Assembly: GCA_902774325.1 (NCBI GenBank)
Contig: CACYIC010000016.1
Location: forward strand, 1-47,138
Reading direction: 5' to 3'
Source: an uncultured Ruminococcus sp.
Lineage (GTDB): Bacteria > Bacillota > Clostridia > Oscillospirales > Acutalibacteraceae
DNA: 47,138 bases
A program made the translations under genes and the position numbers. The number at the start of each line of letters is the position of its first letter. The stretch's first letter is position 1. The notes under the pieces are model-generated. The model was not told the origin of the DNA. It ran no database searches and worked only from the letters and a program-made list of their open reading frames with translations. This document shows positions 8,815 to 40,148 of the stretch, one piece after another.

Positions 8815-11800
8815 TTACACGGGCTGATTTCCAAGCACTACATCAAGCTTCGCGATATACTTTTGCAGGTGGGTCACGTCGTTTATGTCTACCGTGCCGC
8901 TGCCGTCGGTGTCGGCGGCTGCGAGGGCGTCGCCCTCAAGGGTGACAAGCCCCGCGAGGTGCTTTTGGATCGTTGTCGCGTCGCGGATGTCCACTATGCC
9001 GTCGAGGTTCGCGTCGCCTATGAGCAATTCCTTTGTCGCCGTGATCTCTGTATTCTCTGTAACGGTAACGGTGTAAACGCCGTTTTCTTCCGGAAGCTCT
9101 GTGCCGTTGGCTTTTACTTTGAGGACATATCCCGTCTGAACGGTGTCCTTATATCTGAGTGTCACAACAGCACCGCTGAGGTATTTGCTGCCGACCATCA
9201 TATTGGGGCTTGCATTTGTCACGATCTCCATCTGACCGGGGAGTGTCAGAGCAAAAAGGCCTGTCAGGTAGCCGGGCTGTCCTTCCTTGTCGATACGGGC
9301 ATATTCCTTGTCGATATTGTTTGTGCCGTCAAAAGCCGTGCCGTTGCCGCCTGTCAGCGCTGAACATTCGTTGAACATATCAGCGGAATTGGTAACTCTA
9401 TCCGTATTCCAATTGTCGCCGGCATATATTGTTGTCAGTTTCTCGCAGCAGCAGAACATATCACTCATATCCGTTACAAGTCTTGTATCAAAGCCGCTCA
9501 GATCAACTGTTGTCAAGACATTACAGTTGTCAAACATATAGCTCATATTCGTTACACTGCTCGTATTTGCGCCTTTAAGGTCAATAGTTAAGGCATTGTA
9601 AAATTCATTAAACAAATACGACGAATCCTCCGGCAATGTCGCACCGTTGCTGTCAACATTGATATGTTCAACATCACAATTGTACACACCTTTAGGAAGG
9701 ATCATGCCGTTGTCGCCGTTCAATACGGTACCTTTCAAGGTGAGTGTGCATGTTCCTGCTTCGAAGTAGGATTCCACGTCAAAATCCGCAGTTACGGTAA
9801 CATTCTCTGCGGGCATTGTGAACGAGTAAACGCCCTCGACAGGCTCTATCGCAGTATCGTTGTACTTCACGCTCTTGACCGCATAGCCCTCATTGGGAGT
9901 AACCGTCAGCGTTACTATATCGCCGCAGTGCACTGTTGCAGGATTGGCGGTTCCGCCGACTGCCGCAGAAACAGAGCCGTTCGCAGATTGGGTAATGTTG
10001 ATGGTATAGTCTATTGGTGCCACCGTCAGCGTGATGGTCGTCGGCGCGCCGGCATAGTCCGTCTCGTGATCGCCGTTGCGCTGCTCGCTGAACAGCTTGA
10101 GCGTATAGTTGCCCTCCGTCAGCGTGTCCGGCAGCGTCATGTTCCAGACCCCGGAGGCGTTGGTCGTCAGGCTGGCGCAATTCAGGATTTCGCCGTTTTT
10201 GTCACAGAGAAGAGCGGAGATATTGTCGCCGGAGGTCACGCCGCTGTAAGTGACGGCGAGGCTGCCGCCGGGCTCGACGGTCGCTCTGCTTGCTCCGTCC
10301 ACGTTTGCGGTGACCGCGGGACGACTGCTGTCGAGCAGCGTCAGCTTGCGGTCTGCCTCCGTCGTGGGCTCCGTGTAAGTGCTGAATCCACCGGTTGCTT
10401 CCGGCTTGCCTCCTTCGGCACGTGAAGTGAAGAGGACAGATCCAAGATTTAACTGAAAAGCGGGACGCGCCCCGAAGAGGCTGTCGGCGAGGGCACCGAA
10501 ATAATTCAGATAACCTTCTTTGAGGACATCGCCCACGTATTCAGTGTTGTAAAAGTATGGCGAGCGGAGCCACCACCAACCGGGCTGCCTGTCGGCATCG
10601 GAGCTGAAATAGGTTTCCGCTTCCCACGCCGACAGCAGGAACAGCGTCGCATCAGACAGGGTCGTGCCGGCAAAGGGGATTCCGGTCCCCGCCGATGTGT
10701 ATTTTCTGTCCGTCTTGCTCGTGGGCTTCACGGCGTTCTTCTCCGCTGCGGAGAAGTCGTTGAACACGTCGCTGCAATAGGCTTTCGCACTCTCCCACGT
10801 TCTGTCCCCGCCCAATACCTCGGCGGAGATCAAAAGCCATGCCGTATCGCTCACACCGATGACGCGCCACTTGATCCCATTCACATAGACAAAGCCGCCG
10901 TTCGCCACGGGGATGCCGTCGATCAGGGAGCGCTCCCGCCCGAAGTTCGCCGTCAGCGTCAGGTCGGCGGTCACGGTGAAGGTATAGCTTGCGTCGGTGC
11001 TGACCACGCTGCCGTTCTCCGTCCAGTTGACGAAAGTGTAGAGGTCGTTCGCCGTTGCCGTCACGGTAACAGAAACGCCGTCAACATAAATCCCGCCGCC
11101 GCTGACTGTGCCGCCCGCAGCAGGAGAAGCGGTGAGGGTGACGGTGCTGGTGTTCGGTACCGTCAGCGTGATGGTCGTCGGTGTGCCGGCGTAGTCCGTG
11201 TTGTGATCTCCGTTGAGCTGTTCGCTGAACAGATTGAGCGTATAGTTGCTGTACCCTGTCAGCGTGTCCGGCAGCGTCATGTTCCATGTGCCGGAGCCGG
11301 AGCTGTCGGGCGTCAGACTGGCGTAATACAGGATCGCACCGCTTTCGTCACAGAGAAGAGCGGAGATATTGTCGCCGGAGGTCACGCCGCTATAAGTGAC
11401 GGCGAGGCTGCCGCCGGGCTCGACGGTCGCGCTGCTTGCTCCTGCCACGTTTGCGGTGACTGCGGGACGACTGCTGTCGAGCAGCGTCAGCTTGCGGTCT
11501 GCCTCCGTCGCGGGCTCCGTGTATGCGCTGAAGCCGCCGGTTGCTTCGGGCTTGCCGCCTTCGGCGCTTGAAGCGAAGAGGACAGATTCAGGATTTAACT
11601 GAAAAGCGGGTCTTGCACCGTAGTAGCCCCCATTGCGGACGTCGTTGCTCCTCACTTCGCCGACAAAGCCGACAACGCCCGCGTAGCTGTAGCCGTCATT
11701 GCAGATGCTCGGCGACCGCAGCCACCATGTGCCGGGCTGCCTGTCGTAATTGGAACTGAAATAGGTTTCCGCTTCCCACGCCGACAGCAGGAACAGCGTC

Positions 11801-14529
11801 ACGTCCGACAGGGTCGTACCGGCAAAGTCGGTTTGGTACTCCGTCGATGTGTATTCTCCGTCAGTCTTGCTCGTGCGCTTCACGGCGCTCTGCTCCGCTG
11901 CGGAGAAGCCGTTGAACACATCGCCGCAATAGGCTATCGTGTTCTCCCACGTTCTGGTTTCACCCAGCACTTCGGCAGAGATCAGAAGCCATGCCGTATC
12001 GCTCACGCCGATAACGCGCCACTTGATCCCATTCACATAGACATTGCCGCCGTTCGCCACGGGGATGATGTCGTCGATCAAAGAGGGTTCCCACTCAAAG
12101 TTCGCCGTCAGCGTCCGGTCGCCGGTCGCGGTAAAGGTATAGCTTGCGTCGGTGCTGACCACGCTGCCGTTCTCCGTCCAGTTGACGAAGATGTGGTCGT
12201 TCGCAGGCGTCGCCGTCACGGTGACGGACGTGCCCGAAGCGTACGTTCCGCCGCCCGTGACCGTGCCTCCCTCAACAGGAGAAGCGGAGAGGGAGACGCT
12301 ATATGCTACATTCAGTGCAATGGAGGTCGGTGCGCTGGCGTAATTCGTGGTGAATTTGCCGTTCTGCCGCTCGCTGAACAGCTTGAGCGTATAGGCACTG
12401 CCCTTTGTCAGCGTGTCCGGCAGCGTCATGTTCCAGACCCCGGAGTCGTCGGGTGTCAGACTGGCGTAATACCGGATCGCGCCGCTTGCGTCACAGAGAA
12501 GAGCAGAAATATTATCGCGGTTAGTGACGCCGCTGTAAGTGACAGCGAGGCTGCCGCCGGGCACGACAGTTGCGCTGCTTGCCCCTGCCACGTTTGCGGT
12601 GACCGCGGGACGGTTGCTGTCGATCAACGTCAGCTTGCGATCCTGCGCCGCCGTGGGCTCTGTGTATGTGATGAAGTCGCCGGTTGCTTCGGACTTGCCG
12701 CTTTCGGCGTGTGAAGCGAAGAGGACAGATTCAGGATTCAACTGAAAAGCGGGACGTGTGCCGAGCTTATTGCCAACTCTGCGATTGCCCAAAGCACCGC
12801 CATCGGTGACGATCCCGGCGTCTCCATTGATGTTAACGCGCGGCGACCTCAGCCACCAGATGCCGGGCTGCCTGTCGGCATTGGAGATGAAATAGGCCTC
12901 TGCTTCCGACGCCGACAGCAGGAACAGCGTCGCGTCCGTCAGGGTCGTGGCGGCGAAAGGAATCGAACGCTCCGTCGTGTATTCTCCATCTGTCTTGCTC
13001 GTGGGCTTCACGGCGTTCTGCTCTGCCGGGGAGAAGCCGTTGAACACGTCGCCGCAATAGGCTTTCGCGCTCTCCCACGTTCTATACTCGCCAAGCAATT
13101 CGGCGGAGATCAGAAGCCACGCCGTATCGCTCACGCCGATGACGCGCCACTTGATCCAGTTCAAATAGACATAGCCGCCGTTTACCACAGGGATGCCGTC
13201 GATCAAAGAGGATTCCCGCGCAAAGTTCGCCGTAAGTGTGCGGTCGGCGGTCGCGGTGAAGGTATAGCTTGCGTCAGTGCTGACCTGGCTGCCGTTCTCC
13301 GTCCAGTTGACGAAGGTGTAGCCGTCCGCAGGCGTTGCTGTCACGGTGACGGACGCGCCCATATCGTACGTCCCGCCGCCCGTGACCGTGCCTCCCGCAA
13401 CAGGAGAAGCGGAGAGGGTGACGTTATACGGTACAGTCTTCAGTGCAATGGAGGTAGGTGCACTGGCGTAATCCGTGTTGAAATCGCCGTTCTGCTGCTC
13501 GCTGAACAGCTTGAGCGTATAGGTGCTGCCCTTTGTCAGCGTGTCCGGCAGCGTCATATTCCAGACCCCGGAGCCGTCGGGCGTCAGACTGGCGTAGTAC
13601 AGAATCGCGCCGCTCTCGTCGCAGAGGAGCGCTGAGATACAGTCGCCGGAGGTGACGCCGCTGTAAGTAACGGCGAGGCTGCCGCCGGGGATGACATTCT
13701 CGCTGCTCGACCCGTCCACGTTTGCGGTGACCGCAGAACGGCTGCTGTCGATCAAGGTCAGTTTCGCATTTCCGGAGAGGGCAATGATCGTCCCGAAATC
13801 GCCGCTTCCCGCTGTTGCAGAGGATTTGCTGCCTTCGGCGCGTGAAGCGAAGAGGGCATTTAGCTTTATCGCGGGGCGAACGCCGAGAAGAGCACCGACA
13901 CCGACGCCACCGGCGTTAACGCGGCCTTTGTCGCCATCCACTACCGCCGCACCGGATTCACGGCCGCCGGGCGAGCAGAGCCACCATTCGTTTAGCATTG
14001 CATCCGGGTGCTTGGAGCATTTCCTCACATCCTCAGAAAGTGCATACGCCTGCTCAGTTGTTAGCAGGAACATCCCGCTTCCATTGACTGCTGTTTTGGC
14101 ATCTGCTGAGATTTCGGTATTATACCAATTATCCACTGCTGTTTTTACGACAGAAGAAGAATATTCGACATAAAGAGAAGTATTCTGATGACCACCGGGA
14201 GGATAAAATCCGTCAGAATTTGAATTATAATGTGATGTAGCAACACATTCCTTTGAAAGCAGTGTTACCGTACTGCTGTCGTAATCGATCAGGTACCACT
14301 CCTTGTTGTCAAAGTAAACTACTGTTGTGGTATTTTTCAGGCTTTCATAAAAACCATCCGAATACGTCTCCGACGCGGTGCCCGCCGTGTTGATGCCTCT
14401 TTGCAGCGCAGCCGTACCCTCGTTCATCGCCGCGGGCGCCGTCTGCGTTGACGCAAAGACGGAAAACGGCGTCATCGACGTAATCAGCACGAATACCAGC
14501 AAAATGCTGATGATCTTTTTTGTTTTCAT
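8815..14529 (-). CDS. Dockerin-bearing modular surface protein with DUF6273-like repeats (1904 aa)
   Basis: Start: ATG at 14529 with GAGGAGGG 8 nt upstream. A signal peptide (MKTKKIISILLVFVL..., cleavage near VFAS) leads into four copies of a DUF6273-like, C-type-lectin/FGE-type module (WRVIGVSDTAWLLISAE ... WWLRSP ... RPAFQLN). These alternate with an Ig-like module (ANVDG...PGGSLAVTYSG) and a divergent InlB/Flg_new_2-type repeat (ASPVAGGTVTGGGTY...FVNWTENGS). A further InlB-like module follows, then BspA-type DUF285 leucine-rich motifs (SYMFDNCNVLTTVDLSGFDT, DMSDMFCCCEKLTTI) and a C-terminal type I dockerin with two Ca-binding loops (DANLDGIVD and DTDGSGTVD), ending GNQPV. No catalytic domain is seen, so it is likely a scaffold-attached adhesin or binder. 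The segment after each WWLRSP is strongly variable. Confidence 0.9.
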   Translation of the reverse strand: MKTKKIISILLVFVLITSMTPFSVFASTQTAPAAMNEGTAALQRGINTAGTASETYSDGFYESLKNTTTVVYFDNKEWYLIDYDSSTVTLLSKECVATSHYNSNSDGFYPPGGHQNTSLYVEYSSSVVKTAVDNWYNTEISADAKTAVNGSGMFLLTTEQAYALSEDVRKCSKHPDAMLNEWWLCSPGGRESGAAVVDGDKGRVNAGGVGVGALLGVRPAIKLNALFASRAEGSKSSATAGSGDFGTIIALSGNAKLTLIDSSRSAVTANVDGSSSENVIPGGSLAVTYSGVTSGDCISALLCDESGAILYYASLTPDGSGVWNMTLPDTLTKGSTYTLKLFSEQQNGDFNTDYASAPTSIALKTVPYNVTLSASPVAGGTVTGGGTYDMGASVTVTATPADGYTFVNWTENGSQVSTDASYTFTATADRTLTANFARESSLIDGIPVVNGGYVYLNWIKWRVIGVSDTAWLLISAELLGEYRTWESAKAYCGDVFNGFSPAEQNAVKPTSKTDGEYTTERSIPFAATTLTDATLFLLSASEAEAYFISNADRQPGIWWLRSPRVNINGDAGIVTDGGALGNRRVGNKLGTRPAFQLNPESVLFASHAESGKSEATGDFITYTEPTAAQDRKLTLIDSNRPAVTANVAGASSATVVPGGSLAVTYSGVTNRDNISALLCDASGAIRYYASLTPDDSGVWNMTLPDTLTKGSAYTLKLFSERQNGKFTTNYASAPTSIALNVAYSVSLSASPVEGGTVTGGGTYASGTSVTVTATPANDHIFVNWTENGSVVSTDASYTFTATGDRTLTANFEWEPSLIDDIIPVANGGNVYVNGIKWRVIGVSDTAWLLISAEVLGETRTWENTIAYCGDVFNGFSAAEQSAVKRTSKTDGEYTSTEYQTDFAGTTLSDVTLFLLSAWEAETYFSSNYDRQPGTWWLRSPSICNDGYSYAGVVGFVGEVRSNDVRNGGYYGARPAFQLNPESVLFASSAEGGKPEATGGFSAYTEPATEADRKLTLLDSSRPAVTANVAGASSATVEPGGSLAVTYSGVTSGDNISALLCDESGAILYYASLTPDSSGSGTWNMTLPDTLTGYSNYTLNLFSEQLNGDHNTDYAGTPTTITLTVPNTSTVTLTASPAAGGTVSGGGIYVDGVSVTVTATANDLYTFVNWTENGSVVSTDASYTFTVTADLTLTANFGRERSLIDGIPVANGGFVYVNGIKWRVIGVSDTAWLLISAEVLGGDRTWESAKAYCSDVFNDFSAAEKNAVKPTSKTDRKYTSAGTGIPFAGTTLSDATLFLLSAWEAETYFSSDADRQPGWWWLRSPYFYNTEYVGDVLKEGYLNYFGALADSLFGARPAFQLNLGSVLFTSRAEGGKPEATGGFSTYTEPTTEADRKLTLLDSSRPAVTANVDGASRATVEPGGSLAVTYSGVTSGDNISALLCDKNGEILNCASLTTNASGVWNMTLPDTLTEGNYTLKLFSEQRNGDHETDYAGAPTTITLTVAPIDYTINITQSANGSVSAAVGGTANPATVHCGDIVTLTVTPNEGYAVKSVKYNDTAIEPVEGVYSFTMPAENVTVTADFDVESYFEAGTCTLTLKGTVLNGDNGMILPKGVYNCDVEHINVDSNGATLPEDSSYLFNEFYNALTIDLKGANTSSVTNMSYMFDNCNVLTTVDLSGFDTRLVTDMSDMFCCCEKLTTIYAGDNWNTDRVTNSADMFNECSALTGGNGTAFDGTNNIDKEYARIDKEGQPGYLTGLFALTLPGQMEIVTNASPNMMVGSKYLSGAVVTLRYKDTVQTGYVLKVKANGTELPEENGVYTVTVTENTEITATKELLIGDANLDGIVDIRDATTIQKHLAGLVTLEGDALAAADTDGSGTVDINDVTHLQKYIAKLDVVLGNQPV
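10468..10557 (-). other. Variable segment of module 4 (DGR-target-like)
   Basis: It lies between the conserved WWLRSP and RPAFQLN codons. The codons are mostly NNC/NNT (TAC TTT TAC AAC, then later GAC AGC CTC TTC), and the residues do not match the other modules. This is the pattern left by adenine mutagenesis of AAY codons in diversity-generating retroelement targets; that reading is inference. Confidence 0.5.
11614..11709 (-). other. Variable segment of module 3 (DGR-target-like)
   Basis: The first nine codons after the SP codons are AGC ATC TGC AAT GAC GGC, then TAC AGC TAC, all with C or T in the third position. It is flanked by conserved WWLRSP and ARPAFQLN. It differs in length and sequence from the equivalents in the other three modules. 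Confidence 0.5.
12757..12840 (-). other. Variable segment of module 2 (DGR-target-like)
   Basis: Residues between WWLRSP and RPAFQLN begin RVNINGDAGIVTDGG. Many codons end in C or T (CGC GTT AAC ATC AAT), but several (GGA, GGG, TTG, AGA, AAG) do not fit the AAY-derived pattern, so evidence here is weaker than for module 3. Confidence 0.4.
13879..13968 (-). other. Variable segment of module 1 (DGR-target-like)
   Basis: Reads GGRESGAAVVDGDKG, then VNAGGVGVGALLG, ending in GVRPA. The frame of invariant positions (AA.V..dG.vn..G..V...GVRPA) is the classic layout of DUF6273-type variable proteins, with the Asn/Ser/Tyr positions replaced by Gly, Val, Ala and Leu. Confidence 0.5.
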
Positions 14530-14674
14530 AGCTTTTCCCTCCTCAATCATTCAATGGTTATCTTATTTAATATCTGCTGAACAATTCAAAAAACAGAAAT
14601 CATCTGACATTATTACAGTTTTTGAATTGTTTAAGTACATGGGCTTTGAGCGTTTACGTTCAAAACACTTGCAC

Positions 14675-14866: not shown

Positions 14867-15642
14867 TTATGCGGGCTGATTTCCAAGCACTACATCAAAC
14901 TTCGCGATATATTTTTGCAGGTGAGTCACGTCGTTTATGTCGACCGTGCCGCTGCCGTCGGTATCGGCGGGCTTCGCCCTCAAGGGTGACAAGCCCCGCG
15001 AGGTGCTTTTGGATCGTTGTCGCGTCGCGGATGTCCACTATGCCGTCGAGGTTAGCGTCGCCTATGAGCAATTCCTTCATCGTCGCCGTGATTTCCGTAT
15101 TCTCTGTAACGGTGATCGTATAAACGCCGTTTTCTTCCGGCATCTCTGTGCCGTTGGCTTTTACTTTGAGGACATATCCATCCTCAACTGTGCCCTTATA
15201 TCTGAGTGTCAGGGCAGCACCGCTGAGGTATTTGCCGTTGACCATCATATCTTCGTCGGGGTTTGTCACTATCTCCATATAATCGGGGAGTTCCAGAGCA
15301 AAAACGCCTGTCAGGTAGCCGGGCTGTCCGGCTTTGTCGATAACGGCGTAGGTCTTGTCGATATAATCGCCGTCATAAGTCGTGCCGTTGCTGATCGGGC
15401 GGATATCCCTCTTTGTCTTGAATCTTAGCCTTGACGTTGTCGATAGAGTCGCCGGGCTCGACCTCTAAGGTAATGGTATAGCCGGTCAAAGTTTTTACGA
15501 ATATCTGCATCCCGACCGGCTCACTGTCGACATACGCCGCGTTGGAAGGAACAGCTGCAAATATGCCGAACGTCAGCAGCAGCGCAAGGCTGAGTATCAC
15601 CGCCAAAACGCGCCGTATCGGTCGTATGTTTTGTTTGCTCAT
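14867..15642 (-). pseudogene. Broken secreted ubiquitin / dockerin gene
   Basis: The ATG at 15642 has AGGAGG 7 nt upstream. Residues 1-36 are a signal peptide (hydrophobic core [11 protein letters not shown], cleavage near SNAA), and after an 8-residue linker residues 45-86 match ubiquitin 1-42 ([18 protein letters not shown] ... [14 protein letters not shown]). I count 37 of 42 identities with human ubiquitin; the changes are K11Y, S20G, T22S, E24D and I36Y. After R42 the frame ends at HDL-stop (15373). The next frame continues as ISNGTTYDG...GYLTGVFALELP, colinear with the C-terminus of the 1904-residue dockerin protein. A second break, an 8-nt deletion near 14968 relative to that paralogue, shifts the dockerin before its second Ca loop; in the restored frame it ends GNQPA, stop at 14867. 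The Ile44 patch, Lys48, Lys63 and the GlyGly tail are lost. Confidence 0.85.
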
Positions 15643-16004
15643 AGTTTTCCTCCTTTTGAAGCAGCGAAAGCGCACCCCACGGGACGGACTTATCCCTCAG
15701 AGTACGCTTTAGATTTGAGTATATTGATTTTTTGTGAAAAAGACAGAGTTATCTCGCTGACCGCTGACATGAGCATACCCTATCCCTCTCTTTCCGGCAA
15801 TAGGCAATATATATACAGTTATTATACCGCTGTTTTGCGGGATTTTCATTATTTTTGAGCAAATATTTGTCATTTTTTGTTTTGTATCCAAATTGTCGAA
15901 AGACAGATGAAAACGAGGATTTTTGTTTTCTTCTGCCTGATCCGGGCTTGCATAATGTTACAGCGTTTTATCGGAAAATAGTATTATGAACCATTCGTCA
16001 GGGG

Positions 16005-24679: not shown

Positions 24680-27600
24680 TTATCCCAGTCTGTCTATCAG
24701 CTTGGCGATATACTTTTGAACAGCGGTGACGTCGTCTATATCGACATCTCCGTCGCCGTCCGCGTCCGCGTTCGCGAGCGCCGCTCCCTCAAGGGTGATG
24801 AGTCCCGCGATATGCTTCTGTATCGTTGTCGCGTCGCGGATATCAATAACGCCGTCGAGGTTCGCGTCGCCGCGGATAACGCTGCGGACGCGCCAGGTAT
24901 AGGTATCGCTGTCCGCCGCCCAGTCGGTCTGACCGCCGTACTGCTCGGGTTCAGCCATGATCTGTACGACATTTGTATCTCCGTTAGCTTCGTCGAGCCA
25001 CGTGCTGGGATCAACGGTGAAGTAGCCGCCGCTGACGGTGAGGACGGTATAGGTCATAACGCCGTCGCCCATGATATCGAACATCATCGCGCCTACCCGG
25101 ACATTATCGCTGATCGTCATGGTGATGGCAGAATCATCTTCGCCGGAGTAGATCATGTGCTCCAGACGGTCAAATTCCGCGTCGCCGGAAAGCGTTATCG
25201 CAAGGTCAGCTTCTTCGTTTCCGTTATTGAACATCACCAGACCGGTGAAGTGACCGCCGCTGATATGGAAGGTACCGCCGTCGGCTCCGATAAAGCCGCT
25301 GATGACACCGCCGGTGATGTAGTAGGTATCCTCCGTCCACGGCTGGAGGTTCACGCCGATCGTGCCGCTGCTGCGGAACGTGCCTGTGACCGTGCTTACG
25401 ATTTGGATGGTAGTCGGGTAGAAGGTCGGGACATACTCGCCGTCCACATATCGCCGGCCCATGATTCCGCCTGTGAGCGAGCCCTGAACGTCAAGGGTGT
25501 GACCGTTCAGATCAAACCAGATCGCGTCATCCGAATTGACCTCGAGCGTCTCGCCCTGAGCCACGACGCAGTCGCGCAGGAGCATGACCTTGGAATCGTT
25601 GTACCAGAAGTAGTAGGAGTTTTCATTGGCGGGCAGAGTCGTGATGCTGTCCCTGTAATCATGGTCGAGAGCCGCCGCTGTCATCGCGGCCTGAAGCGTC
25701 GGGCAGTAGGATACGGAATAGATGTGAGACGAATTTTCGTCGGTCTCGCGAAGCTCGATCGTATAGCTCTGTGTCAGCGTCGCCTCGAAGCACGCGCCGA
25801 CGGCTTCACCCGGCGCGAACACGCCGTTTTCATAAGCCGTGATATTGCCGCCCGTCACCGAACCGTTACCTGTAAAGGTCAGGCTTCCGCGCACGGCGAT
25901 CATTTCTCCGTAGAACTCCGCCGCCTTTGTGCCGTCGAGGGTCTTGCCGTTCAGGTCGATGATCGCGGTCACGCCCTCGGGAACGGTGAGAGGATAGCTG
26001 CCGACCGACGCCGTAAGATCTTCTGTCAGCGTGATCGTGCCGAGGTCTGTGCCGGATTCGGCGTTAAGGGTCTCGCCCAGCAGATCCCAGCCGTTCGGGT
26101 CGCGCCAGAGCGCCGTAAAGGTCACGTCCTCCGTCAGGGTGAATTCCTCGCCTGCCGCGTAGACCCTGTTGTTGTACGACCATCCGGCGAAGTATTTGTT
26201 TTTGGGGATAATGAACACCTCATCCGCTGCGGGCAGCGGAGCGGTCTCTCCCGTGGGGAACGGGATGGCGGGAGTTACGGTCGCTCCCTCGCCGCCGATC
26301 ACCTCGGCGCCGTTTCCGTCAAAGGTGACGGTGGGCTTGAGCCGCGTGACCGCCGTGAAGGTCACGTCGCCGGAAATTAAGAACTCGTCGCCCTCGTTAT
26401 AGTTTTCGTCGTCCTTACTCCAGCAGACGAATTCTCTCTCATAGGAATTGAACAGATCGTCAAAATCCGCGAGCGTTATCGTCGAATTCTTCCGCGCCGC
26501 GACGGACTGAGTCTCCTCGCCGAACACATAATTCACCAAGGCGCGCGAGAATACCGTGATCGTCAGCGCGTAGCCCGCGTTGTTTACGGAGGAGTCGGAA
26601 TGGAAGTATATCGTCAGGTATTCTCCGTCTGTTATCAGCGGCTCGCTTATTGTGAACCTGCCGCCGTATCTTTCATTTCCGAGAGCGGGACTTCTGTCTG
26701 TGCCGCCGTTGTAGAATTTAAGATAGTCGTAGGAAGAAGATTCGGTCACGCCGCTGCCGCTGACAGACACCACCATGTTTTCGGGAGCTTTTACGATGAT
26801 CTCCGCGTCGTTGCTGTTCGAATAATTGGCGTCCTTGCCGTCGTCGTACAGCGTGAAGAAGAAGCCGTTTGATTTTTTGGACAGGTCGATCAGCAGAGGA
26901 TCGTTCACGTTATTAAGCGGCGTCGTGGCGTACCAGCCGTTTTCTCCTTCGGGCAGAAGAACCTCGAGGACCGCGTCAAATACCGTCGGGTTATCCGCGA
27001 CGTACCCGTAGCCCGCCTGATAGACGGTGCCGCTGAATTTTTCCTTCCAGCCCATGAAGTGCATACCCGAGGGCAGCACGAACAGATCGGTGAGCTCGGG
27101 AAGCGTGACGGTCGAGCCGAGCGGATACCGTATCGCCTTGCTTTCATCTTTGCAGGTGTAGGTGAAGCCCGTGGCTGCCACCCACTGCGCCGTCAGCGTC
27201 GTGTTCGCGACGATGGACACGCTCGCGCCCGGATAATAAGTGTTTTCGCCGTCGGAATAGCCCGCGAATATCTTGCTTCCGGGAGCGGTAAAGCCATAGT
27301 CGGGAAGCGTGATCGACTCGCCGGAGATCACGGTTATCGGATCCATCTCTCCGCTGCCCTCGCCGGGATCGAAGGAAAGGGTTACAAGCGTCGAGGGATC
27401 GACGAGCATGACGTTGAGCACAAAGCCCGCGCGGTTGTAGTAGCCGTCGCTCGTAAACTGCACCTTCATGGTGTTGGAGGAGGTTTGCATATCGGTCAGG
27501 GTGAAGCTGCCGCTGTACTCTGTCCCGCCCATAAGCGTCGTCAGATCGGAATCATAGATCCTGAGGATATCGCAGTTCGTATCGGTAAGACCCTCGCCGC

Positions 27601-30600
27601 TGAACCTGAAAACGAATCCCTCGGGCGCGGTCATGGTAAGGCTTCCGCTGCAGTTGGCGGCGTAAAGATTCTGCCCGCCGTTGTCATAGAGCTTGAAGGT
27701 AAAGCCGTTCGTCTTGTCGGTCAGATCGAAATCGTCTATCTGCTCGATCACCGGCATAAGCGCGTAGAAGCCTTCCTCGCCGCCGTCGATCAGGTAAGGC
27801 AGATTCTCAAACTCGGCGGTGTAGGTCGTGTCCTCGGTCGCCGTAATGAGCGTAAGCGCGGGATACGCCTCGCCGTCGTTTCCGTTGAGCCAGTGCTTCA
27901 GCTCTTTTCTGTATGGCAGTCTTGAAAATCTCGTTTCATATTCCGCGAGATAGAACTGAGCTCCCTTGCGGTAATACGCGGTCGCTTCCTGATCGTCGTG
28001 ACCCTTATAGGTGATGATTATTTTTTCGATATATACCGCCGTCAGGTGAATATCCTCGGTGACGGCGAAATAATCGTTCACGTGATAGTTGTTAGTGCCG
28101 TCGGTATAATAATCGAAGTAGGTTTTCTCGGGAAGTGTAAAGGTGCACGCGGGTATATAGAGATTGTCGCCGGGCAAAAGTACGATGTCATCCATCGTGC
28201 CGCTGCCCTCGCCAGCGTCAAAGGAGACTGTGATCAGTGAGGACGGACGGGTGACGGTGAGCTTTATCGTGAAACCGGCTTTGTTGGTTCTGGCGTCGGA
28301 GGTAAAGCGGAACGTCACGGCATTGCCTGTGGAATAGAGCTTGCCGAGCGTGGGTGAGCCGCTGTAGCTGCCGATCAGCTCCGCGTCCTGAGAATCGCCG
28401 TCGTATATCTTGAGATAATCGGCTCTTTCCTCGGTGTTAACGCTAGCGGAAAGCTGCATGATGCAGCCCTCGGGAGCCAGAACTGTCAGCGAACCGTCGC
28501 AGTTGTAGCCATAGAAGCTGTCGCCGCCGTTGTCGAACACCCAAAGCTGATAGCCCTCGCTTTCATTGGTCAGATCAGCCGTCAGGGAGCCGTTTTTAGG
28601 CAGGGTGGAATAGTTTTCATAGTTTTGGTACGCGGTTCCCTCTTCGCCGTGCATGATGACGGGCATCTCCTCGATCACCGCCGTAAAATCGACGTCCCCG
28701 TTCGCGGTAAACGAGTCGCCCGCGGCGTACACGGTTTCGCCGCACCGCCAGCCCTTGAAGAGCTTTCTGTCGGGAAGGGTGAACATGGAAGCGAAGGTCG
28801 GAAGCGTGAACTGAGTTCCCTTTTCCGCCAGATTTGATTTGGATTCCTCGCCGAAAATATAGGTGACGCCGGCGTAATCGTTCCGGCTGACCACAGTTAC
28901 GTTCAGACTAAAGCCGTCGTATTGATCGCCTCCGTCGGAGCGGAAGTACAGTCTGACGACTCTGCCGCTGCTCAGGACGTTGTTCACCGTGAACGTGCCC
29001 TGATATTTTCCGCTGCCGAGAGTCTTGGTCGTATCGCCGTCGTAGATGCAAAGCCAGTCGTAGCTGCTTTCCGTGTAGCCGGTGCCGCTGATTTTGAGGA
29101 GGCAGTTCTCGGGAGCGGTGATACTCAAGTAACCGTTGCAGTTGCCCGAATAGTCCGACGAGCTGCCGCCGTCGTCGTAAACCTTGAGGACGAAGTTCGG
29201 TTCCTGATCGCTCAGGTCGACCGCGGCGTTTCCGGTCGCGTTCATATTGACAAAGCTGATGCTGCCGTCCTGCTGTATCTCCACCACGGTCTCAACGACT
29301 GCGGTAAAGGTGGTGTTGCCGCTCACCGTGAACGACGCGCCTTCATTATAGATCGTTCCGTCGTATTTCCAGCCCTTGAATCTCTGTCCCTCGTAAAGGG
29401 TGAACATCGATTCAAAGGTCGGCAGAATGATCTCGTTGCCCTCGTAGGCGTAATCGGACTGAGTACTGCCGTCATAGGAGTAGGTCACGGTGAATCGGCT
29501 GAGGAAAGCAGCCGTCAGCGTCTTGCTCTCATTGAGGACGATCACATCGCCCGGCTTATAGCGGTTAGTACCGTCGGTGTAATAGCCGAAGTATTTGTTG
29601 TAGGGCGCGGTAAAAGCGCACTCGGGCACGGTGACCTCATCGCCGGGGGCGACCGTGATGCTACTCATCATTCCGCTGCCGTTTCCGGCGTTGAAGGATA
29701 CCGTCGCGACAGAGGAAGCGTCAACGAGCGTCACGGTCAGGTCAAGACCTTCGTAGTTGTAGTAGCTGCAGGGGGCAAAACGGATGGTCAGCGCGTTCGA
29801 GGTCGTATAGACCGGATCGATAGTCTTTGTTCCGCTGTCCTTCAAAACAAGCGTCGCATCTGTGCTCGCGCCGTCATAGATGTAAAGGTAATCGTAGTTG
29901 TCACCCGTCACGATGCTGCCGCCGACGCTGAGAACGCAGCCCGCCGGAGCCGAAACGGTAACGGAGCCGTCGCAGTAGTATGAGTAATTACCGCTCAGTC
30001 CGCCGTCGTCGAACACGCGGAACTGATATCCCGCGCTCTTGTCGCTGAGGTCAGCCGTGACCGCGACAGTTCTCGGAAGCAGGGCGTAATCATAGTTGTT
30101 TTCGTCATCGTGCAGGATCACCGGCTCGTCCTCAAACACCGCAGTAAAGGTGACGTCGCTGTTCACGGTGAAGGAGTCGTTCTCGTTATAAACCGTCTCC
30201 CCCGCCTGCCAGCTCTTGAAGATCTTCCTCTCGGGAACGGTGAACATCGAGGTATAGGTCGGCAGATATATCTCGGTTCCCTGCGTATAAACGTATGACT
30301 GTGTATAACTGCCGCCGTCGTAGGTCACAGTGTACCTGTTGATGAGTACAGCCGTCAGAGTTTTATTCCCGCTGAGCGTGATAACGTCGTTCGGCTGATA
30401 GTTATTTTCGCCGTCCGTATAGTGAGTGAACTGCTTGTTGTAGGGTATTGTGAAGGAGCACTCCGGAACGGTCACGGTATCGCCGGGCAAAGCCTTGATG
30501 CTGTTCATGGTGCCGTCGGCCTCTCCGGGGCTGAACGAAAGGGCGATAAACGAATCCTCGTCTATGAGCGTCACGGTAAGATCAAGACCAGTGCGCTCTC

Positions 30601-31915
30601 CGTAGCCGTCGGAGGTTAAGCGTATTGTCAGCGCGGCGCCGGTCGAGTAGACCGCGGAAATTGTATTCGTTCCGCTTTTCCTGAAAATCTGAGTTGCTTC
30701 ACTTGTCGCTCCGTCATAGACTTCGAGATAGTCGTAGCCGTCTTCCGTCGTATAGCTTCCGCTGACGCCGACAGCGCAGCCCAACGGAGCCAAAATGGTG
30801 ATCGAGCCGTAGCAGTTTTTCGAGTAATTATCGCTCAAGCCGCCGTCGTCGAACACGCGGAGCTGATAGCCCGCCTCCTTGTCGCCGAGGTCAGCCGTGA
30901 CCGCGACAGTTCTCGGGAGCAGAGCGTAATCGTAATTATCGGTGTCGTCGTGCAGGATCACCGGCTCGTCCTCAAACGTCGCCGTAAAGGTGACGTCGCT
31001 GTTCACGGTGAAGTGATCGCCCTCGTTATAAAGCGTCTCTCCCGACTGCCAGCCCGTGAAGATCTTTCTTTCGGGAAGGGTGAACAACGAGGCAAAGGTC
31101 GGCAGATCGATCTCAGTTCCCTGCGGCATATCCGCCGTCTGAGTATCTGTCCCGAACTCGCAGGTGACCGTCGCCTTGTTGACGTAAACCGCCGTCAGGA
31201 TTTTATTCCCGTTGAGCGTGATAACGTCGTTCGGATTATAGTTGTTTTCGCCGTCCGTATAATGGGAGAAAAGCTTGTCGCCGGGGATCGTGAAGCCGCA
31301 TTCGGGCACGGTCACGCTCTCGCCCGGATCGACGCTGATCGAACGCATCGTACCGCTGCCATCTCCCGCGTCAAAAGAAAGTGTGGCAAGAGATGAAAGA
31401 GATAAAAGCGTAACATCCAGCTCAAATCCCGAATAGTTATAGACGTAGTCGGAACGGAACCAAAGTGTCAGGACGTTTCCGCTGCTCAACATCGGACTGA
31501 CAGTGAACGGTCTGCCGGCGTATTTGCCGCCCGAAGCTTCTCCGAGCGTCTCAGCCGCATTGTCACTGCCGTCGTAAATGGTCAGCCAGTCGTAGCTTGT
31601 GCTTTCGGAATTGCCGCTGCCGCTGATTCTGATGAGGAAATCTTCCTTCGCGGTGATTTGCAGATAACCGTCGCAGTTATCGGAATAATTTGCCTCCGCG
31701 CCGCCGTCGTCATAGACCTTGAACGTAAAGCCGTTCGTCTTGTCGCTGAGGTCGAGCGTATCCGTTCCGCTCGCGGGCATATTGACGGAATAACCGTCAT
31801 CGTCATTGCCCGAAAGCTGAACAGCCTCCGCAAACGCGGTGAGCGGCGCCGATGATATCAGCAAAAGCAATACCAGAAGCAGCGCGGTAAGTTTTTTGAA
31901 TGTCTTTTTACTCAT
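24680..31915 (-). CDS. Giant secreted protein with seven CUB-like modules, InlB-type repeats and dockerin (2411 aa)
   Basis: Signal peptide at residues 1-29 (LLLVLLLLISSAPLTAFA). Seven CUB-like modules follow. Each begins with a strand and KVYDDGG or RVFDDGG, then NYSxNCDGxLxI.AP, a DYLxIYDG motif and a strand such as LTIRFxSD. They alternate with InlB/Flg_new-type repeats (VSFDAGxGSG, then KxFxxYTDGxNxYxPxDVI, or FKGWxxGExVYxxGDSF). Near residues 2060-2330 lies a beta-helix-like region (VPEGVTAIIDLNGKTLDG), and the protein ends in a type I dockerin (DANLDGVIDIRDATTIQKH and DADGDGDVDIDDV). CUB folds bind proteins or glycans in other systems. No catalytic site is seen, so a scaffold-bound adhesin is likely. 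GGAGGTG lies 5 nt before the ATG. Confidence 0.92.
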   Translation of the reverse strand: MSKKTFKKLTALLLVLLLLISSAPLTAFAEAVQLSGNDDDGYSVNMPASGTDTLDLSDKTNGFTFKVYDDGGAEANYSDNCDGYLQITAKEDFLIRISGSGNSESTSYDWLTIYDGSDNAAETLGEASGGKYAGRPFTVSPMLSSGNVLTLWFRSDYVYNYSGFELDVTLLSLSSLATLSFDAGDGSGTMRSISVDPGESVTVPECGFTIPGDKLFSHYTDGENNYNPNDVITLNGNKILTAVYVNKATVTCEFGTDTQTADMPQGTEIDLPTFASLFTLPERKIFTGWQSGETLYNEGDHFTVNSDVTFTATFEDEPVILHDDTDNYDYALLPRTVAVTADLGDKEAGYQLRVFDDGGLSDNYSKNCYGSITILAPLGCAVGVSGSYTTEDGYDYLEVYDGATSEATQIFRKSGTNTISAVYSTGAALTIRLTSDGYGERTGLDLTVTLIDEDSFIALSFSPGEADGTMNSIKALPGDTVTVPECSFTIPYNKQFTHYTDGENNYQPNDVITLSGNKTLTAVLINRYTVTYDGGSYTQSYVYTQGTEIYLPTYTSMFTVPERKIFKSWQAGETVYNENDSFTVNSDVTFTAVFEDEPVILHDDENNYDYALLPRTVAVTADLSDKSAGYQFRVFDDGGLSGNYSYYCDGSVTVSAPAGCVLSVGGSIVTGDNYDYLYIYDGASTDATLVLKDSGTKTIDPVYTTSNALTIRFAPCSYYNYEGLDLTVTLVDASSVATVSFNAGNGSGMMSSITVAPGDEVTVPECAFTAPYNKYFGYYTDGTNRYKPGDVIVLNESKTLTAAFLSRFTVTYSYDGSTQSDYAYEGNEIILPTFESMFTLYEGQRFKGWKYDGTIYNEGASFTVSGNTTFTAVVETVVEIQQDGSISFVNMNATGNAAVDLSDQEPNFVLKVYDDGGSSSDYSGNCNGYLSITAPENCLLKISGTGYTESSYDWLCIYDGDTTKTLGSGKYQGTFTVNNVLSSGRVVRLYFRSDGGDQYDGFSLNVTVVSRNDYAGVTYIFGEESKSNLAEKGTQFTLPTFASMFTLPDRKLFKGWRCGETVYAAGDSFTANGDVDFTAVIEEMPVIMHGEEGTAYQNYENYSTLPKNGSLTADLTNESEGYQLWVFDNGGDSFYGYNCDGSLTVLAPEGCIMQLSASVNTEERADYLKIYDGDSQDAELIGSYSGSPTLGKLYSTGNAVTFRFTSDARTNKAGFTIKLTVTRPSSLITVSFDAGEGSGTMDDIVLLPGDNLYIPACTFTLPEKTYFDYYTDGTNNYHVNDYFAVTEDIHLTAVYIEKIIITYKGHDDQEATAYYRKGAQFYLAEYETRFSRLPYRKELKHWLNGNDGEAYPALTLITATEDTTYTAEFENLPYLIDGGEEGFYALMPVIEQIDDFDLTDKTNGFTFKLYDNGGQNLYAANCSGSLTMTAPEGFVFRFSGEGLTDTNCDILRIYDSDLTTLMGGTEYSGSFTLTDMQTSSNTMKVQFTSDGYYNRAGFVLNVMLVDPSTLVTLSFDPGEGSGEMDPITVISGESITLPDYGFTAPGSKIFAGYSDGENTYYPGASVSIVANTTLTAQWVAATGFTYTCKDESKAIRYPLGSTVTLPELTDLFVLPSGMHFMGWKEKFSGTVYQAGYGYVADNPTVFDAVLEVLLPEGENGWYATTPLNNVNDPLLIDLSKKSNGFFFTLYDDGKDANYSNSNDAEIIVKAPENMVVSVSGSGVTESSSYDYLKFYNGGTDRSPALGNERYGGRFTISEPLITDGEYLTIYFHSDSSVNNAGYALTITVFSRALVNYVFGEETQSVAARKNSTITLADFDDLFNSYEREFVCWSKDDENYNEGDEFLISGDVTFTAVTRLKPTVTFDGNGAEVIGGEGATVTPAIPFPTGETAPLPAADEVFIIPKNKYFAGWSYNNRVYAAGEEFTLTEDVTFTALWRDPNGWDLLGETLNAESGTDLGTITLTEDLTASVGSYPLTVPEGVTAIIDLNGKTLDGTKAAEFYGEMIAVRGSLTFTGNGSVTGGNITAYENGVFAPGEAVGACFEATLTQSYTIELRETDENSSHIYSVSYCPTLQAAMTAAALDHDYRDSITTLPANENSYYFWYNDSKVMLLRDCVVAQGETLEVNSDDAIWFDLNGHTLDVQGSLTGGIMGRRYVDGEYVPTFYPTTIQIVSTVTGTFRSSGTIGVNLQPWTEDTYYITGGVISGFIGADGGTFHISGGHFTGLVMFNNGNEEADLAITLSGDAEFDRLEHMIYSGEDDSAITMTISDNVRVGAMMFDIMGDGVMTYTVLTVSGGYFTVDPSTWLDEANGDTNVVQIMAEPEQYGGQTDWAADSDTYTWRVRSVIRGDANLDGVIDIRDATTIQKHIAGLITLEGAALANADADGDGDVDIDDVTAVQKYIAKLIDRLG
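29640..31340 (-). repeat. 840-bp coding repeats in exact register
   Basis: Two neighbouring CUB/InlB units share long near-identical stretches at an offset of exactly 840 bp (30001 against 30841, 30112 against 30952, 29701 against 30541). A third, more diverged copy continues toward 31381. This points to recent duplication or gene conversion. Confidence 0.75.
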
Positions 31916-32154: not shown

Positions 32155-35100
32155 CTAACCGAGAACAATTGTCAGCTTCGCGATATACTTTTGGATCGCG
32201 GTGACGTCGCCGATGTCGATACTGCCGTCGCCGTCGGCGTCGGCGTTTTCAAGCGCGGTATCGTCGAGGGTGATAAGTCCCGCGAGATACTTCTGGACGG
32301 TCGTAGCGTCTATTATGTCGATCACGCCGTCGAGATTGACGTCGCCGACCTCGTAGCTCTCGTATTTGAAGCACATTTCATGTCTTGAGAGCTGCTCGGC
32401 GGTAGACGCCTTATTCACGCCGTCGCCCTCGAGCAGCCAATCAACATAAAGCGCGTCAAGGTCGACAAGACTTTCGCAGCCGTTCGCGGCGCTGATAAGC
32501 AGAGTGGTCTGCTTTGTGACCTCCGCGGCGTCTCCGGCTGTCGGCATCCTGTACATGGTGATATTCGCGGCGCGCTTTTCGAGCGCGGCGGAGACCGCCT
32601 CCGCGAACGAGGTGAAGCGGTAGGTCGCGCCCTTGTGCTCGAAGGAAGCGACGGCGCCGCTTATAACGTCGAGTGTAAAATCGGAATAACCGTTGGGATT
32701 ATCAAATTCAGCGGTGTAGCCCTCGGCGTCGCTGCCGCCGATGACCGCCGCATACTCATAGGTCTTGCCGCTGTGCGAATGACGTACAAAAACGGTTTCG
32801 CCCGCGCCGCCTGCCTCCCGCGCCATCTCTGCGGGAATACCGACGGTCACTCTTGTCGGCTCCGCAACGTCGACAGCCAGCGCCTGAGAAATAGGAACGC
32901 TGTTTTGGCTGTCAAGCTCCGTACCGGGCTGCTCGGCGGTCGCAACGGTCTGCTTCATCGGAGTGATCCCGAACCTCATTGTTAGGTGATCGCCGTACCG
33001 CTCAAAGCCCTTGACCTCGACCTCTAAATATGTCTTTTCAACGACTCTGATCTCCGCGTTTTGTCCGTCGGCTGTCTTTATGATGACCGTTTCGCCGTCG
33101 CTGTCGACAACTATCAAGCCCGCCTGAGCAAGAGCCTCGACTGCGGATGACTTTTCGCCGTCCGTTAAGGCTCTGCCGCCTTCGACAGGCAGATCGACGC
33201 TTACCGCTTCGGCAGCCGCGAGCAGCGTTTGGGCGGTGGCGTCATCTGCCGAAACGCCCATCAAGGTCTCGTTTTTGCCCTGCTCCGAAAGCGCGCTGCC
33301 GCCGATATTATCAAGCGCATCCGCCAAAGTCGCTTCCGCGATGAACTGAGCGCTGACAGTCGTATTTCCGGCGGGCATCACGAAGGAGTATTCCGTATCT
33401 CCGTTCTGTGAAACGCTCACGGTGACGGGCTTTGTCTCGCCGTTCGCCGTATAGGTGACCGCGCCGGGCCTGAATCCCTCCGAGGCGGCGGGAGTTACGG
33501 TCACTAAGGCTCCCTCCACGGCTTTCGCAGCGGAAACGTTGATATTGCCGTTTGAGATACCGTCCGCGATCATCACGTCATAAAGCTCGCCCGTTATCGC
33601 CTCGACCGTGATATTCTGCGCCGGCATATCGAAGGTAAAGCCGCCGTTCTTATCAGGCGTGATATCAACAACTGTCGCGGGCTCGCCGTAGCTGTAACGA
33701 TAGCCCTTGATTGCCGCCGTTGAGTCCGTATCGGCGTTCAGCGTGATCAGATCTCCGTAACAAGCCGTTCCGGGCAGTTCGGAGGAATAGCTCACGCCCG
33801 CGACGTCCGCATAGGCTATGCTGTATTCGTTTTGGGTGAACACCGCGCTCACGGTCACATTGCTCTCGGGCATTGTAAAGCTGCCGCCGGTCACCTCGTA
33901 GATCTTATTGGTGGTTTCGTTTTTCACCGTTATCCTGTCAAGCGTATAACCGGGCTTGGGCTCGGCGGACACGGCGACCTCGCTGCCCTCGGGAGCCTTC
34001 GCCTTGTTGACGGTCACGGTTCCGTTTTCGACCTCGTCGACGCTGACGTTGAAGCCGTCCTTCGCTATAACCAGCACGGAGGTCTGACAAGCCTCGTAGT
34101 TCGCGGTTTCGGGGAGCGCAAAGGTCATATAGGTGTAGCCATCGCCCTTATACGCCACCGCCGCCATCAGGACGTTGCCGGACTTATAGGACAAGCCCTC
34201 GCCCTTTGCCGCGATATCGGCGTTTTCTGTCGTTACGATCACATCCTCGGCTCTTGCTGAATCGTCATAATCCGAATTGAGCCTGAGCGCGGCGGTTTTG
34301 TCGCTGCCGTAAAGCTGCAAAATCGAATCCGCGGTGATCGTCCTCTTCACCTTGTTGATGGTCATCTTCGCTGTCGCGCGTCCGATAAATCTTGAATCCT
34401 CATAGATCACGCGAACGGTGTAAACGCCCGCGTCGACGGGAGCTTCGTCTGTCATATCGGCGAGGTCGGTGCTTTCGCCCTCAAAGTATTCATAGGTCAT
34501 GGTGGGATTGGAGCCCTGGGTGTAGTATGTTCCCTCGAAGCTGATGGCAGCCTCGGGCTGCTGCGCCTCGCCGTTAAAGGCGACCTCTGTATCCTCGATG
34601 CTTATTAAGGATGAAACGTCGGTCTTTGTTTTCCAGATCGCATAGAGCGTCATATCCTCCTGGTCGGCGGAGAAATAGACGGATGAGTTATCATAATAGG
34701 CTCTCGCTCCGTCGGGAGTAAGCGACCAGTAGTTGAAAGCAAGAGTTTCGTGACGGAAGGCGTTCTTGTCCAGATAGTCTCTTGTGCTCACGGTTATCGT
34801 CTGAGGCGCCATAGTGCCGTAGCCACCGTTGGCGTCGAATGTGATCGTCACGTTTCTCTTCCAGACCGCGTACAGCGTCGTATCGTAACTCCTTGCGACA
34901 GCCTCGCCGTCATCATAGGAAGCGTATGTAGAAGTGCTGCTCGTGCTCCATCCGGCGAAGGTGTAGCCCTCGCGGGTGAAGGTGTTCGGGTTCAGCGGGG
35001 TCTCTTCGCCTTTTTGGAGCTTCTGCGGCTCCATCTCTCCCTCGCCGCCGTTCGGGTCAAAGGTCACGATACAGGTGGTCGGCGTCCACTGCGCGTACAA

Positions 35101-40056: not shown

Positions 40057-40148
40057 TTTGCACCTCCGATAAAAAAATTGAAAATAATATGGCAACACCG
40101 CATAATTCAGGTGTGAGGATCGTGCGTTGTTGTCATATATATATCAGC

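What the first reader, a model, noticed from the sequence alone, without database searches (positions are those of the whole stretch)
14867..15642. Secreted bacterial ubiquitin relic fused to a dockerin gene tail
After a Sec signal peptide, residues 45-86 match ubiquitin 1-42 at 37 of 42 positions, far closer than any convergent beta-grasp protein. It is cut off before Ile44, Lys48, Lys63 and the GlyGly tail. The sequence then continues, out of frame, as the 3' end of a DUF285/dockerin gene. The join shares AGCAACG with both parents, as expected for a microhomology deletion. A secreted ubiquitin is known from Bacteroides fragilis; here the context is a Gram-positive dockerin locus. An intact ancestor would export a ubiquitin homologue, possibly docked on a cell-surface scaffold, in a host-associated microbe.
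Basis: partly seen in the sequence, partly recalled or inferred. Interest (0 to 1): 0.85.

Follow-up and report, generated by a model that had tools for sequence, protein, structure and literature searches.

The report
Broken copy of exported bacterial ubiquitin
This bacterium carries a broken gene for an exported ubiquitin, a protein thought of as eukaryotic, and intact relatives in other bacteria carry it at the tip of secreted or surface-attached proteins, which raises the question of whom they show it to.

Summary
On the minus strand, 15642-15373 encodes a signal peptide plus ubiquitin 1-42 (37 of 42 identical to human; Pfam ubiquitin 4e-12). It then runs out of frame into a DUF285/dockerin 3' end, 87% identical in DNA to that of the neighbouring 1911-aa gene; an 8-bp gap in the dockerin is a second lesion. 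The copy is a pseudogene, or an assembly error that I could not exclude. Relatives matter more. Sixteen of 100 same-genus genomes have ubiquitin behind a signal peptide, some as minimal signal peptide-ubiquitin-dockerin proteins of 167-192 aa. Other bacteria put N-terminal ubiquitin on autotransporters, SLH modules, LPxTG-like or CTERM-like tails. A strict signal-peptidase motif abuts Met1 in 69 of 98 (about 2% elsewhere). The Ile44 patch and most lysines are kept; Gly76 is mostly lost. In nine genus genes ubiquitin is far more constrained than its dockerin (pN/pS 0.07 vs 0.55). I infer a displayed, non-conjugatable ubiquitin bound by an outside partner. Ten literature searches listed no paper on this architecture; BfUbb of B. 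fragilis is the characterised bacterial case found.

The parts
15649..15657 (-). Shine-Dalgarno-like AAAAGGAGG upstream of the ATG
   Evidence: sequence
15535..15642 (-). Sec-type signal peptide (residues 1-36, [11 protein letters not shown]...NAA; cleavage site estimated by eye)
   Evidence: sequence; 65% identical over residues 1-40 to a 1417-aa ORF of the same genome
15511..15534 (-). short spacer YVDSEPVG between signal peptide and ubiquitin Met1, similar in L002
15385..15510 (-). ubiquitin residues 1-42, 37 of 42 identical to human
   Evidence: Pfam PF00240 46.1 bits, PDB sequences, count
15373..15384 (-). out-of-frame end of the ORF (HDL and stop)
15385..15393 (-). join; GCAACGG shared with the 3' end of the neighbouring gene
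14982..15398 (-). DUF285 end, linker and first dockerin repeat (15062-14982), in the second frame
   Evidence: 82% identical to 8938-9348; Dockerin_1 match below the cut-off, 18 vs 22.9 bits
14967..14981 (-). second lesion: 8-bp gap relative to the neighbour, shifts the frame inside the dockerin (placement approximate)
   Evidence: DNA alignment
14867..14968 (-). second dockerin repeat and TAA, in the third frame
8815..14550 (-). neighbouring intact 1911-aa gene (InlB-type repeats, DUF6273, DUF285, dockerin), relative of the tail

Best explanation
The window holds the decayed remnant of a gene for a Sec-exported protein whose N-terminal domain was ubiquitin and whose C-terminus was a DUF285-dockerin module. 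A deletion removed ubiquitin from about residue 42 and everything up to the end of the DUF285 region, out of frame; an 8-bp loss also broke the dockerin. The remnant lacks half the fold and can hardly work as ubiquitin or as a docked protein. In intact relatives I propose this working: the Sec pathway exports the protein; signal peptidase cuts right before ubiquitin Met1 in most of the collected forms, or leaves a short spacer (the window, L002, L003 and about half of the genus forms); ubiquitin folds outside the cell at the N-terminal tip; a C-terminal module (dockerin, autotransporter barrel, SLH, LPxTG-like or CTERM-like tail) holds it on a scaffold or the cell surface. Conjugation is given up (Gly76 mostly lost, C-terminus blocked by the fusion), while the Ile44 face and most lysines are kept, so it most likely acts as a displayed ligand or decoy for ubiquitin-binding proteins outside the bacterium, for instance of protists or an animal host. 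Shown here: sequence, architecture, distribution, constraint. Inferred: export, display, binding, partner.
For: Window anatomy. Intact forms: 21 of 100 same-genus genomes match PF00240: the own broken copy, 16 with ubiquitin behind a signal peptide (one of these, G485, probably split by a contig end), and 4 with only an internal, divergent domain. Family 20 of 398 (own included; several divergent or internal), phylum 5 of 398 (own included; one other strong), controls 0 of 14. Export: of 133 domains in 119 loci 104 from 98 loci were kept; 98 have at least 20 aa upstream; 69 have Ala at -1 with Ala/Val at -3 directly before residue 1, against 1.6% of downstream and 2.2% of upstream positions; a looser rule gives 81 against 15-16%; 92 have a hydrophobic stretch upstream. 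Anchors: autotransporter barrel in 7 and SLH in 1 of 10 proteins scanned, dockerin in 8 of 8 chosen for it, LPxTG-like tails in 4. Constraint: nine genus genes, 36 pairs, median pN/pS 0.069 for ubiquitin and 0.550 for the dockerin (35 pairs each with pS over 0.15). These nine and four more genus loci share R6, V13, I26, E/G32 and A57, found together in none of the other loci kept, so much of the constraint acted after a common bacterial ancestor. In 22 profile-retrieved signal-peptide forms the Ile44 patch averages 89% human identity, the seven lysines 84%, Gly76 14%; GC3 of the ubiquitin part follows the rest of its ORF (r 0.85, n 90). Two cohesin matches in the genome.
Against: I found no experiment on these fusion proteins; the one tested relative, free BfUbb, acts on other bacteria. 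Synonymous sites are near saturation, so pN/pS ratios are rough, the pairs are not independent, and swapped dockerins could inflate the dockerin figure. The 80 genome-contig loci are the best of 159 and were found with peptide patterns that include VGMQIFVK and KAKIQDKE, which inflates conservation there. In the less biased 22, core residues such as V26 (14%) and I13 (41%) and also K6 (41%, otherwise R) vary. Not every relative is exported: 6 of 104 have fewer than 20 aa upstream, and some actinobacterial-type loci (L042, L051, L064) have no visible signal peptide. Six of 100 genus genomes have E2-like matches, one of them over the cut-off (G452, which also has an exported-type ubiquitin), and E1 or ligases were not searched, so an internal partner is not excluded. 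Signal peptides were judged by residue rules, not by a trained predictor. No reads were available for the window copy.
Confidence: 0.6

Rival explanations
1. The exported ubiquitins are weapons against other bacteria, like BfUbb: the ubiquitin domain recognises a target on competitors, and the window copy is a lost weapon.
For: BfUbb is a secreted bacterial ubiquitin that antagonises other B. fragilis strains and is present in 13 of 97 genomes of that species (PMC5705921, passages; PMC3352274, passages). The patchy distribution and tandem free copies in Pedobacter (L046) resemble it.
Against: Most collected forms are fusions: 94 of 104 without GG75-76, 4 with it, 6 free. Strong constraint towards human-like residues is not what one expects of an arms race with bacterial targets (inference).
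Confidence: 0.2
2. Ubiquitin is only a very stable, fast-folding N-terminal cap that helps export or protects large surface proteins; no partner reads its surface.
For: It sits at the N-terminus of many unrelated proteins, and most core residues are kept.
Against: The Ile44 patch and the lysines are about as conserved as the core: 89% and 84% versus 86% in 22 profile-retrieved forms (core list recalled). The minimal proteins are little more than ubiquitin plus dockerin.
Confidence: 0.2
3. The window copy is an assembly chimera of an intact ubiquitin gene and a dockerin gene.
For: The genome is a 74-contig assembly, 91% complete; the tail resembles the neighbouring gene (87% DNA identity), and such repeats can cause misjoins.
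Against: The tail differs from the neighbour throughout (54 mismatches and 16 gap positions in 531 aligned columns), so it is not a misplaced copy of it, and a second frameshift lies about 400 bases away.
Confidence: 0.12
4. The truncated 89-aa ORF is itself functional: it would export a ubiquitin 1-42 peptide.
For: Start, ribosome site, signal peptide and ubiquitin frame are undamaged. N-terminal ubiquitin peptides (1-18, 1-34) are reported to have or support antimicrobial activity (PMC10892293, passages).
Against: The piece ends where a deletion begins, none of the matches listed has the same end, and decay is the simpler reading.
Confidence: 0.05

Closest known systems
BfUbb (ubb) of Bacteroides fragilis
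   Same: Sec-exported bacterial ubiquitin, 63% identical to human, without the GlyGly end (PMC3352274, abstract and passages); secreted, 76-residue mature form (PMC5705921, abstract and passages).
   Different: Free protein of one Gram-negative species. The relatives collected here are closer to human ubiquitin (median 87.5% over residues 1-72, a set picked by similarity), come from several phyla by record title, and are mostly N-terminal domains of larger proteins.
'Ubiquitin family protein' WP_013483628.1, Ruminococcus albus 7 plasmid pRUMAL01
   Same: Named public annotation of a related protein in Ruminococcus albus (52% identity over residues 3-144 of L128); a dockerin type I protein is the third gene downstream.
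   Different: Annotation only, on a plasmid; I did not scan this protein for a dockerin.
Eukaryotic ubiquitin-ribosomal protein fusions (eL40, eS31)
   Same: Ubiquitin at the N-terminus of a fusion; the PDB search returns them.
   Different: Eukaryotic fusions keep GlyGly and are cut to release ubiquitin (recalled); here Gly76 is lost in most, and a signal peptide precedes ubiquitin.
Type I dockerin proteins of cellulosomes
   Same: Dockerin_1 at the C-terminus; two cohesin matches in the genome.
   Different: Cargo is ubiquitin, where cellulosomal dockerins usually carry enzymes (recalled); in the window the dockerin is frameshifted.
Pup and bacterial ubiquitin-like conjugation in CBASS
   Same: Bacterial proteins with ubiquitin-like roles (titles seen in listings).
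   Different: Intracellular conjugation systems (recalled), not compared in sequence here; the present proteins look exported and mostly lack the conjugation end.

Membership tests
Ubiquitin (PF00240) | profile match over the curated cut-off | tested here: met
   46.1 bits vs 25.4 for the window ORF, profile 1-40 of 72; 108-111 bits for five genus ubiquitin-dockerins
Ubiquitin (PF00240) | complete beta-grasp fold | tested here: not met
   window copy stops at residue 42; in intact relative L128 the model (mean pLDDT 59; 64-89 over the ubiquitin blocks) matches ubiquitin structures, e.g. 5oxi_A with TM 0.94 by target
Conjugatable ubiquitin | C-terminal GlyGly | tested here: not met
   absent in the window copy; GG75-76 in 5 of 104 domains kept (4 fusions, 1 free)
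BfUbb-type secreted bacterial ubiquitin | Sec signal peptide before ubiquitin | tested here: met
   window residues 1-36 by inspection; strict site directly before Met1 in 69 of 98 relatives
BfUbb-type secreted bacterial ubiquitin | antagonises related strains | not testable with these tools
   needs purified protein
Dockerin-bearing (cellulosome-type) protein | in-frame type I dockerin | tested here: not met
   window dockerin is split over two frames, neither the ubiquitin frame; met in the eight relatives scanned
Dockerin-bearing (cellulosome-type) protein | cohesin partner in the genome | tested here: met
   two PF00963 matches over the cut-off; binding not tested

The most novel reading that the evidence does not exclude
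Bacteria of many phyla keep a eukaryote-derived ubiquitin as a standard surface-display module: the signal peptide is cut to leave an authentic ubiquitin N-terminus at the tip of an anchored protein, the conjugation end is discarded, and the recognition face has been held nearly constant over long times because proteins of protists or animal hosts read it. In some rumen-type Clostridia the module is docked on a cellulosome-like scaffold.
Probability: 0.4. Interest if true: 0.92.

Novelty: new variant of a known kind. Interest (0 to 1): 0.78.

Why it matters
Ubiquitin is a textbook eukaryotic hallmark; a 2024 review (passages) names only Pup and BfUbb as prokaryotic cases in the passages I saw. 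A recurrent, strongly constrained, exported ubiquitin domain in bacteria implies a reader outside the cell, unless these bacteria have ubiquitin enzymes of their own: 94 of 100 genus genomes had no E2 match, E1 and ligases were not searched. Records not labelled MAG (Ruminococcus albus, Dyella, Pedobacter, Cohnella) carry it, so the question can be tested in the laboratory now.

Tried and rejected
Contamination: rejected because of signal peptides, codon composition matching each ORF and records not labelled MAG. L045 (Nitrospinota MAG, four head-to-tail ubiquitins without signal peptide) looks eukaryotic and was dropped. Ortholog of the window gene: a same-genus 1127-aa ORF (L192, genome G466) has the signal peptide and the DUF285-dockerin tail but no ubiquitin match; a 1417-aa ORF of the own genome (L193) has a similar start and DUF285-like repeats by eye, no ubiquitin match and no dockerin that I could see. 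The unbroken parent was not found. Phage or plasmid origin: no hit in phage records, two plasmid records, five viral-contig loci, four of them over the ubiquitin part. E2 enzymes as internal partners: matches in 6 of 100, one over the cut-off. Structure of L128: the ubiquitin part models fairly, the dockerin part poorly. In the 22-domain count the internal InlB-repeat forms, L151 and L165 were also left out, and four signal-peptide forms under 90 bits.

Literature: ten searches; their capped listings show no paper on this architecture. I read passages of four papers (PMC5705921, PMC3352274, PMC4378268, PMC10892293) and saw only listings of the rest. Subscription papers are mostly absent from that library.

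Full report
What is there. On the minus strand of the window, an ATG at 15642 with AAAAGGAGG upstream opens an 89-aa frame: a Sec-type signal peptide, a spacer YVDSEPVG, and [42 protein letters not shown], then HDL and a stop. The last stretch is ubiquitin 1-42, 37 of 42 residues identical to human ubiquitin (human sequence as printed). Pfam gives PF00240 at 4.2e-12. The 60 PDB sequences shown, of 302, are ubiquitins, ubiquitin fusions or engineered variants. It is the only PF00240 match in the genome.

The break. Downstream the sequence continues in another frame as the end of a DUF285 region, a linker and a first dockerin repeat, and after a further shift as the second dockerin repeat. The same stretch is present, 82% identical in protein and 87% in DNA, at the end of the adjacent 1911-aa gene; the alignment shows an 8-bp gap in the window copy at the second shift. 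The join shares GCAACGG with that paralogue. On the ubiquitin side, L002 and L003 use CAGCAGCGG for residues 40-42, so the last one or two residues may be supplied by the tail; the microhomology reading is plausible but not proven. Reads were not available.

Where the parts come from. The first 40 residues resemble the start of a 1417-aa ORF elsewhere in the genome (65%). A same-genus 1127-aa ORF has both this kind of signal peptide (49% over residues 2-58) and the tail (66%). Neither has a ubiquitin match. So the broken gene looks like a member of this protein family that carried ubiquitin behind its signal peptide. That unbroken parent was not found.

Intact relatives. A scan of genome contigs gave 159 relatives and kept the best 80 loci. 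Profile searches found PF00240 in 20 of 398 family genomes, 21 of 100 genus genomes and 5 of 398 phylum genomes, the own genome counted in each, and in 0 of 14 control genomes. Of the 21 in the genus, one is the own broken copy, 16 have ubiquitin behind a signal peptide (in G485 probably split by a contig end, L150 and L151), and 4 have only an internal, more divergent domain within InlB-type repeats (L143, L144, L146, L147). The genus has minimal proteins of signal peptide, whole ubiquitin and dockerin, confirmed by Pfam: L128 (169 aa), L130 (167), L133 (168), L131 (188), L127 (192); longer ones are L134 and L136, and L003 from a Ruminococcus MAG. L135, L139 and L140 show the dockerin motif only. 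Among the 20 family genomes several matches are divergent, internal or weak, and of the four other phylum genomes one is strong.

Beyond the genus. In other bacteria (record titles) the same N-terminal module sits on autotransporter barrels (7 of 10 proteins scanned) and SLH domains (Cohnella), with LPxTG-like tails in four loci and CTERM-like tails in others by eye, and with GLUG, DUF6273, YDG/MBG or beta-helix regions, mostly in Clostridia. L035, L041 and L154 showed no clear further Pfam domain. Six of the 104 domains kept are free ubiquitins, one of which (Dyella, L043) ends exactly at GlyGly.

Export. Of 98 domains with at least 20 residues upstream, 69 have Ala at -1 and Ala or Val at -3 directly before ubiquitin residue 1, against 1.6% of positions downstream and 2.2% upstream in the same proteins; a looser rule gives 81 against 15-16%. 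So in most the mature protein would begin with ubiquitin Met1. A few of the 81 (L003, L139) fit the looser rule only inside a spacer. In the window, L002, L003 and about half of the genus forms a short spacer intervenes. Some loci (L042, L051, L064) have no visible signal peptide, and 6 of 104 domains have fewer than 20 residues upstream. No trained predictor was used.

Constraint. Over 104 domains the median identity to human residues 1-72 is 87.5% (61-99%), while synonymous sites are saturated in 4523 of 5356 pairs. This set is biased towards similarity and towards the scan's peptide patterns. A profile-retrieved subset of 22 gives core 86% (list recalled), lysines 84% (K6 is R in 13 of 22), Ile44 patch 89%, Gly76 14%; V26 and I13 of the core vary. 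In nine ubiquitin-dockerin genes of the genus the median pN/pS is 0.069 for ubiquitin and 0.550 for the dockerin of the same genes. These nine and four more genus loci share five substitutions found together in no other locus kept. I read this as strong purifying selection on ubiquitin inside bacteria. Saturation, non-independence and possible dockerin swapping make the numbers rough. GC3 of the ubiquitin part follows the rest of its ORF (r 0.85, n 90).

How it may work. Shown: sequence, architecture, distribution, constraint, two cohesin matches in the genome. A model of L128 (mean pLDDT 59; 64-89 over the ubiquitin blocks) matches ubiquitin structures best. Inferred: export, anchoring and an outside reader of the Ile44 face. 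Rivals are a BfUbb-like weapon and a mere folding cap. E2-like matches occur in 6 of 100 genus genomes, one over the cut-off; that ORF has no signal peptide by eye.

What is known. BfUbb is exported, lacks GlyGly, binds human E1 covalently in vitro and mediates antagonism between B. fragilis strains (PMC3352274 and PMC5705921, abstracts and passages). A 2024 review mentions Pup and BfUbb as prokaryotic cases (PMC10892293, passages). A named annotation exists in R. albus 7. The listings of ten literature searches show nothing on displayed or docked bacterial ubiquitin; 15 papers in the library mention BfUbb (listing only). I therefore call it a new variant of a known kind. For the window itself the verdict is a broken copy; the interest lies in what it led to.

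Noticed in passing
L165:7891-9003 (genome G093): Three tandem ubiquitin-like ORFs (110-124 aa stop to stop) start with a leader ending LSEEELELVIGG, which resembles double-glycine bacteriocin leaders (label recalled), instead of a Sec signal peptide. Four neighbouring ORFs scanned with Pfam showed no transporter.
   Followed up: partly
L199:1985-2431 (IMG/VR contig): Signal peptide-ubiquitin ORF with an IPTL-CTERM-like tail near ORFs that look like terminase subunits, so possibly phage-borne (labels by eye).
   Followed up: partly
L046 (Pedobacter cryoconitis): Four neighbouring signal peptide-ubiquitin ORFs, each ending at or just past ubiquitin residue 72.
   Followed up: no
L143-L148, L158, L160, L162: Internal ubiquitin-like domains within InlB-type repeat proteins; the second half (RLIFAGKQLED..TL..YNI.KESTIHL) is better kept than the first (by eye).
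   Followed up: partly
window 24680-31915 (minus): 2411-aa dockerin protein with seven CUB stretches, a domain better known from animals (last part recalled).
   Followed up: no
window 32155-40098 (minus): 2647-aa protein with Listeria-Bacteroides repeats and a dockerin.
   Followed up: no
L173:1087-1662 (genome G452): 191-aa E2-like (UQ_con, 28.5 bits) ORF without signal peptide by eye, in a genome that also has an exported-type ubiquitin.
   Followed up: partly
L045: Four head-to-tail ubiquitins without signal peptide in a Nitrospinota MAG contig, probably eukaryotic contamination.
   Followed up: no
L010, L014, L002: These share ubiquitin I36Y with the window; L014's record is titled Lentisphaerae and L002's Clostridiales, which hints at transfer between phyla.
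   Followed up: no
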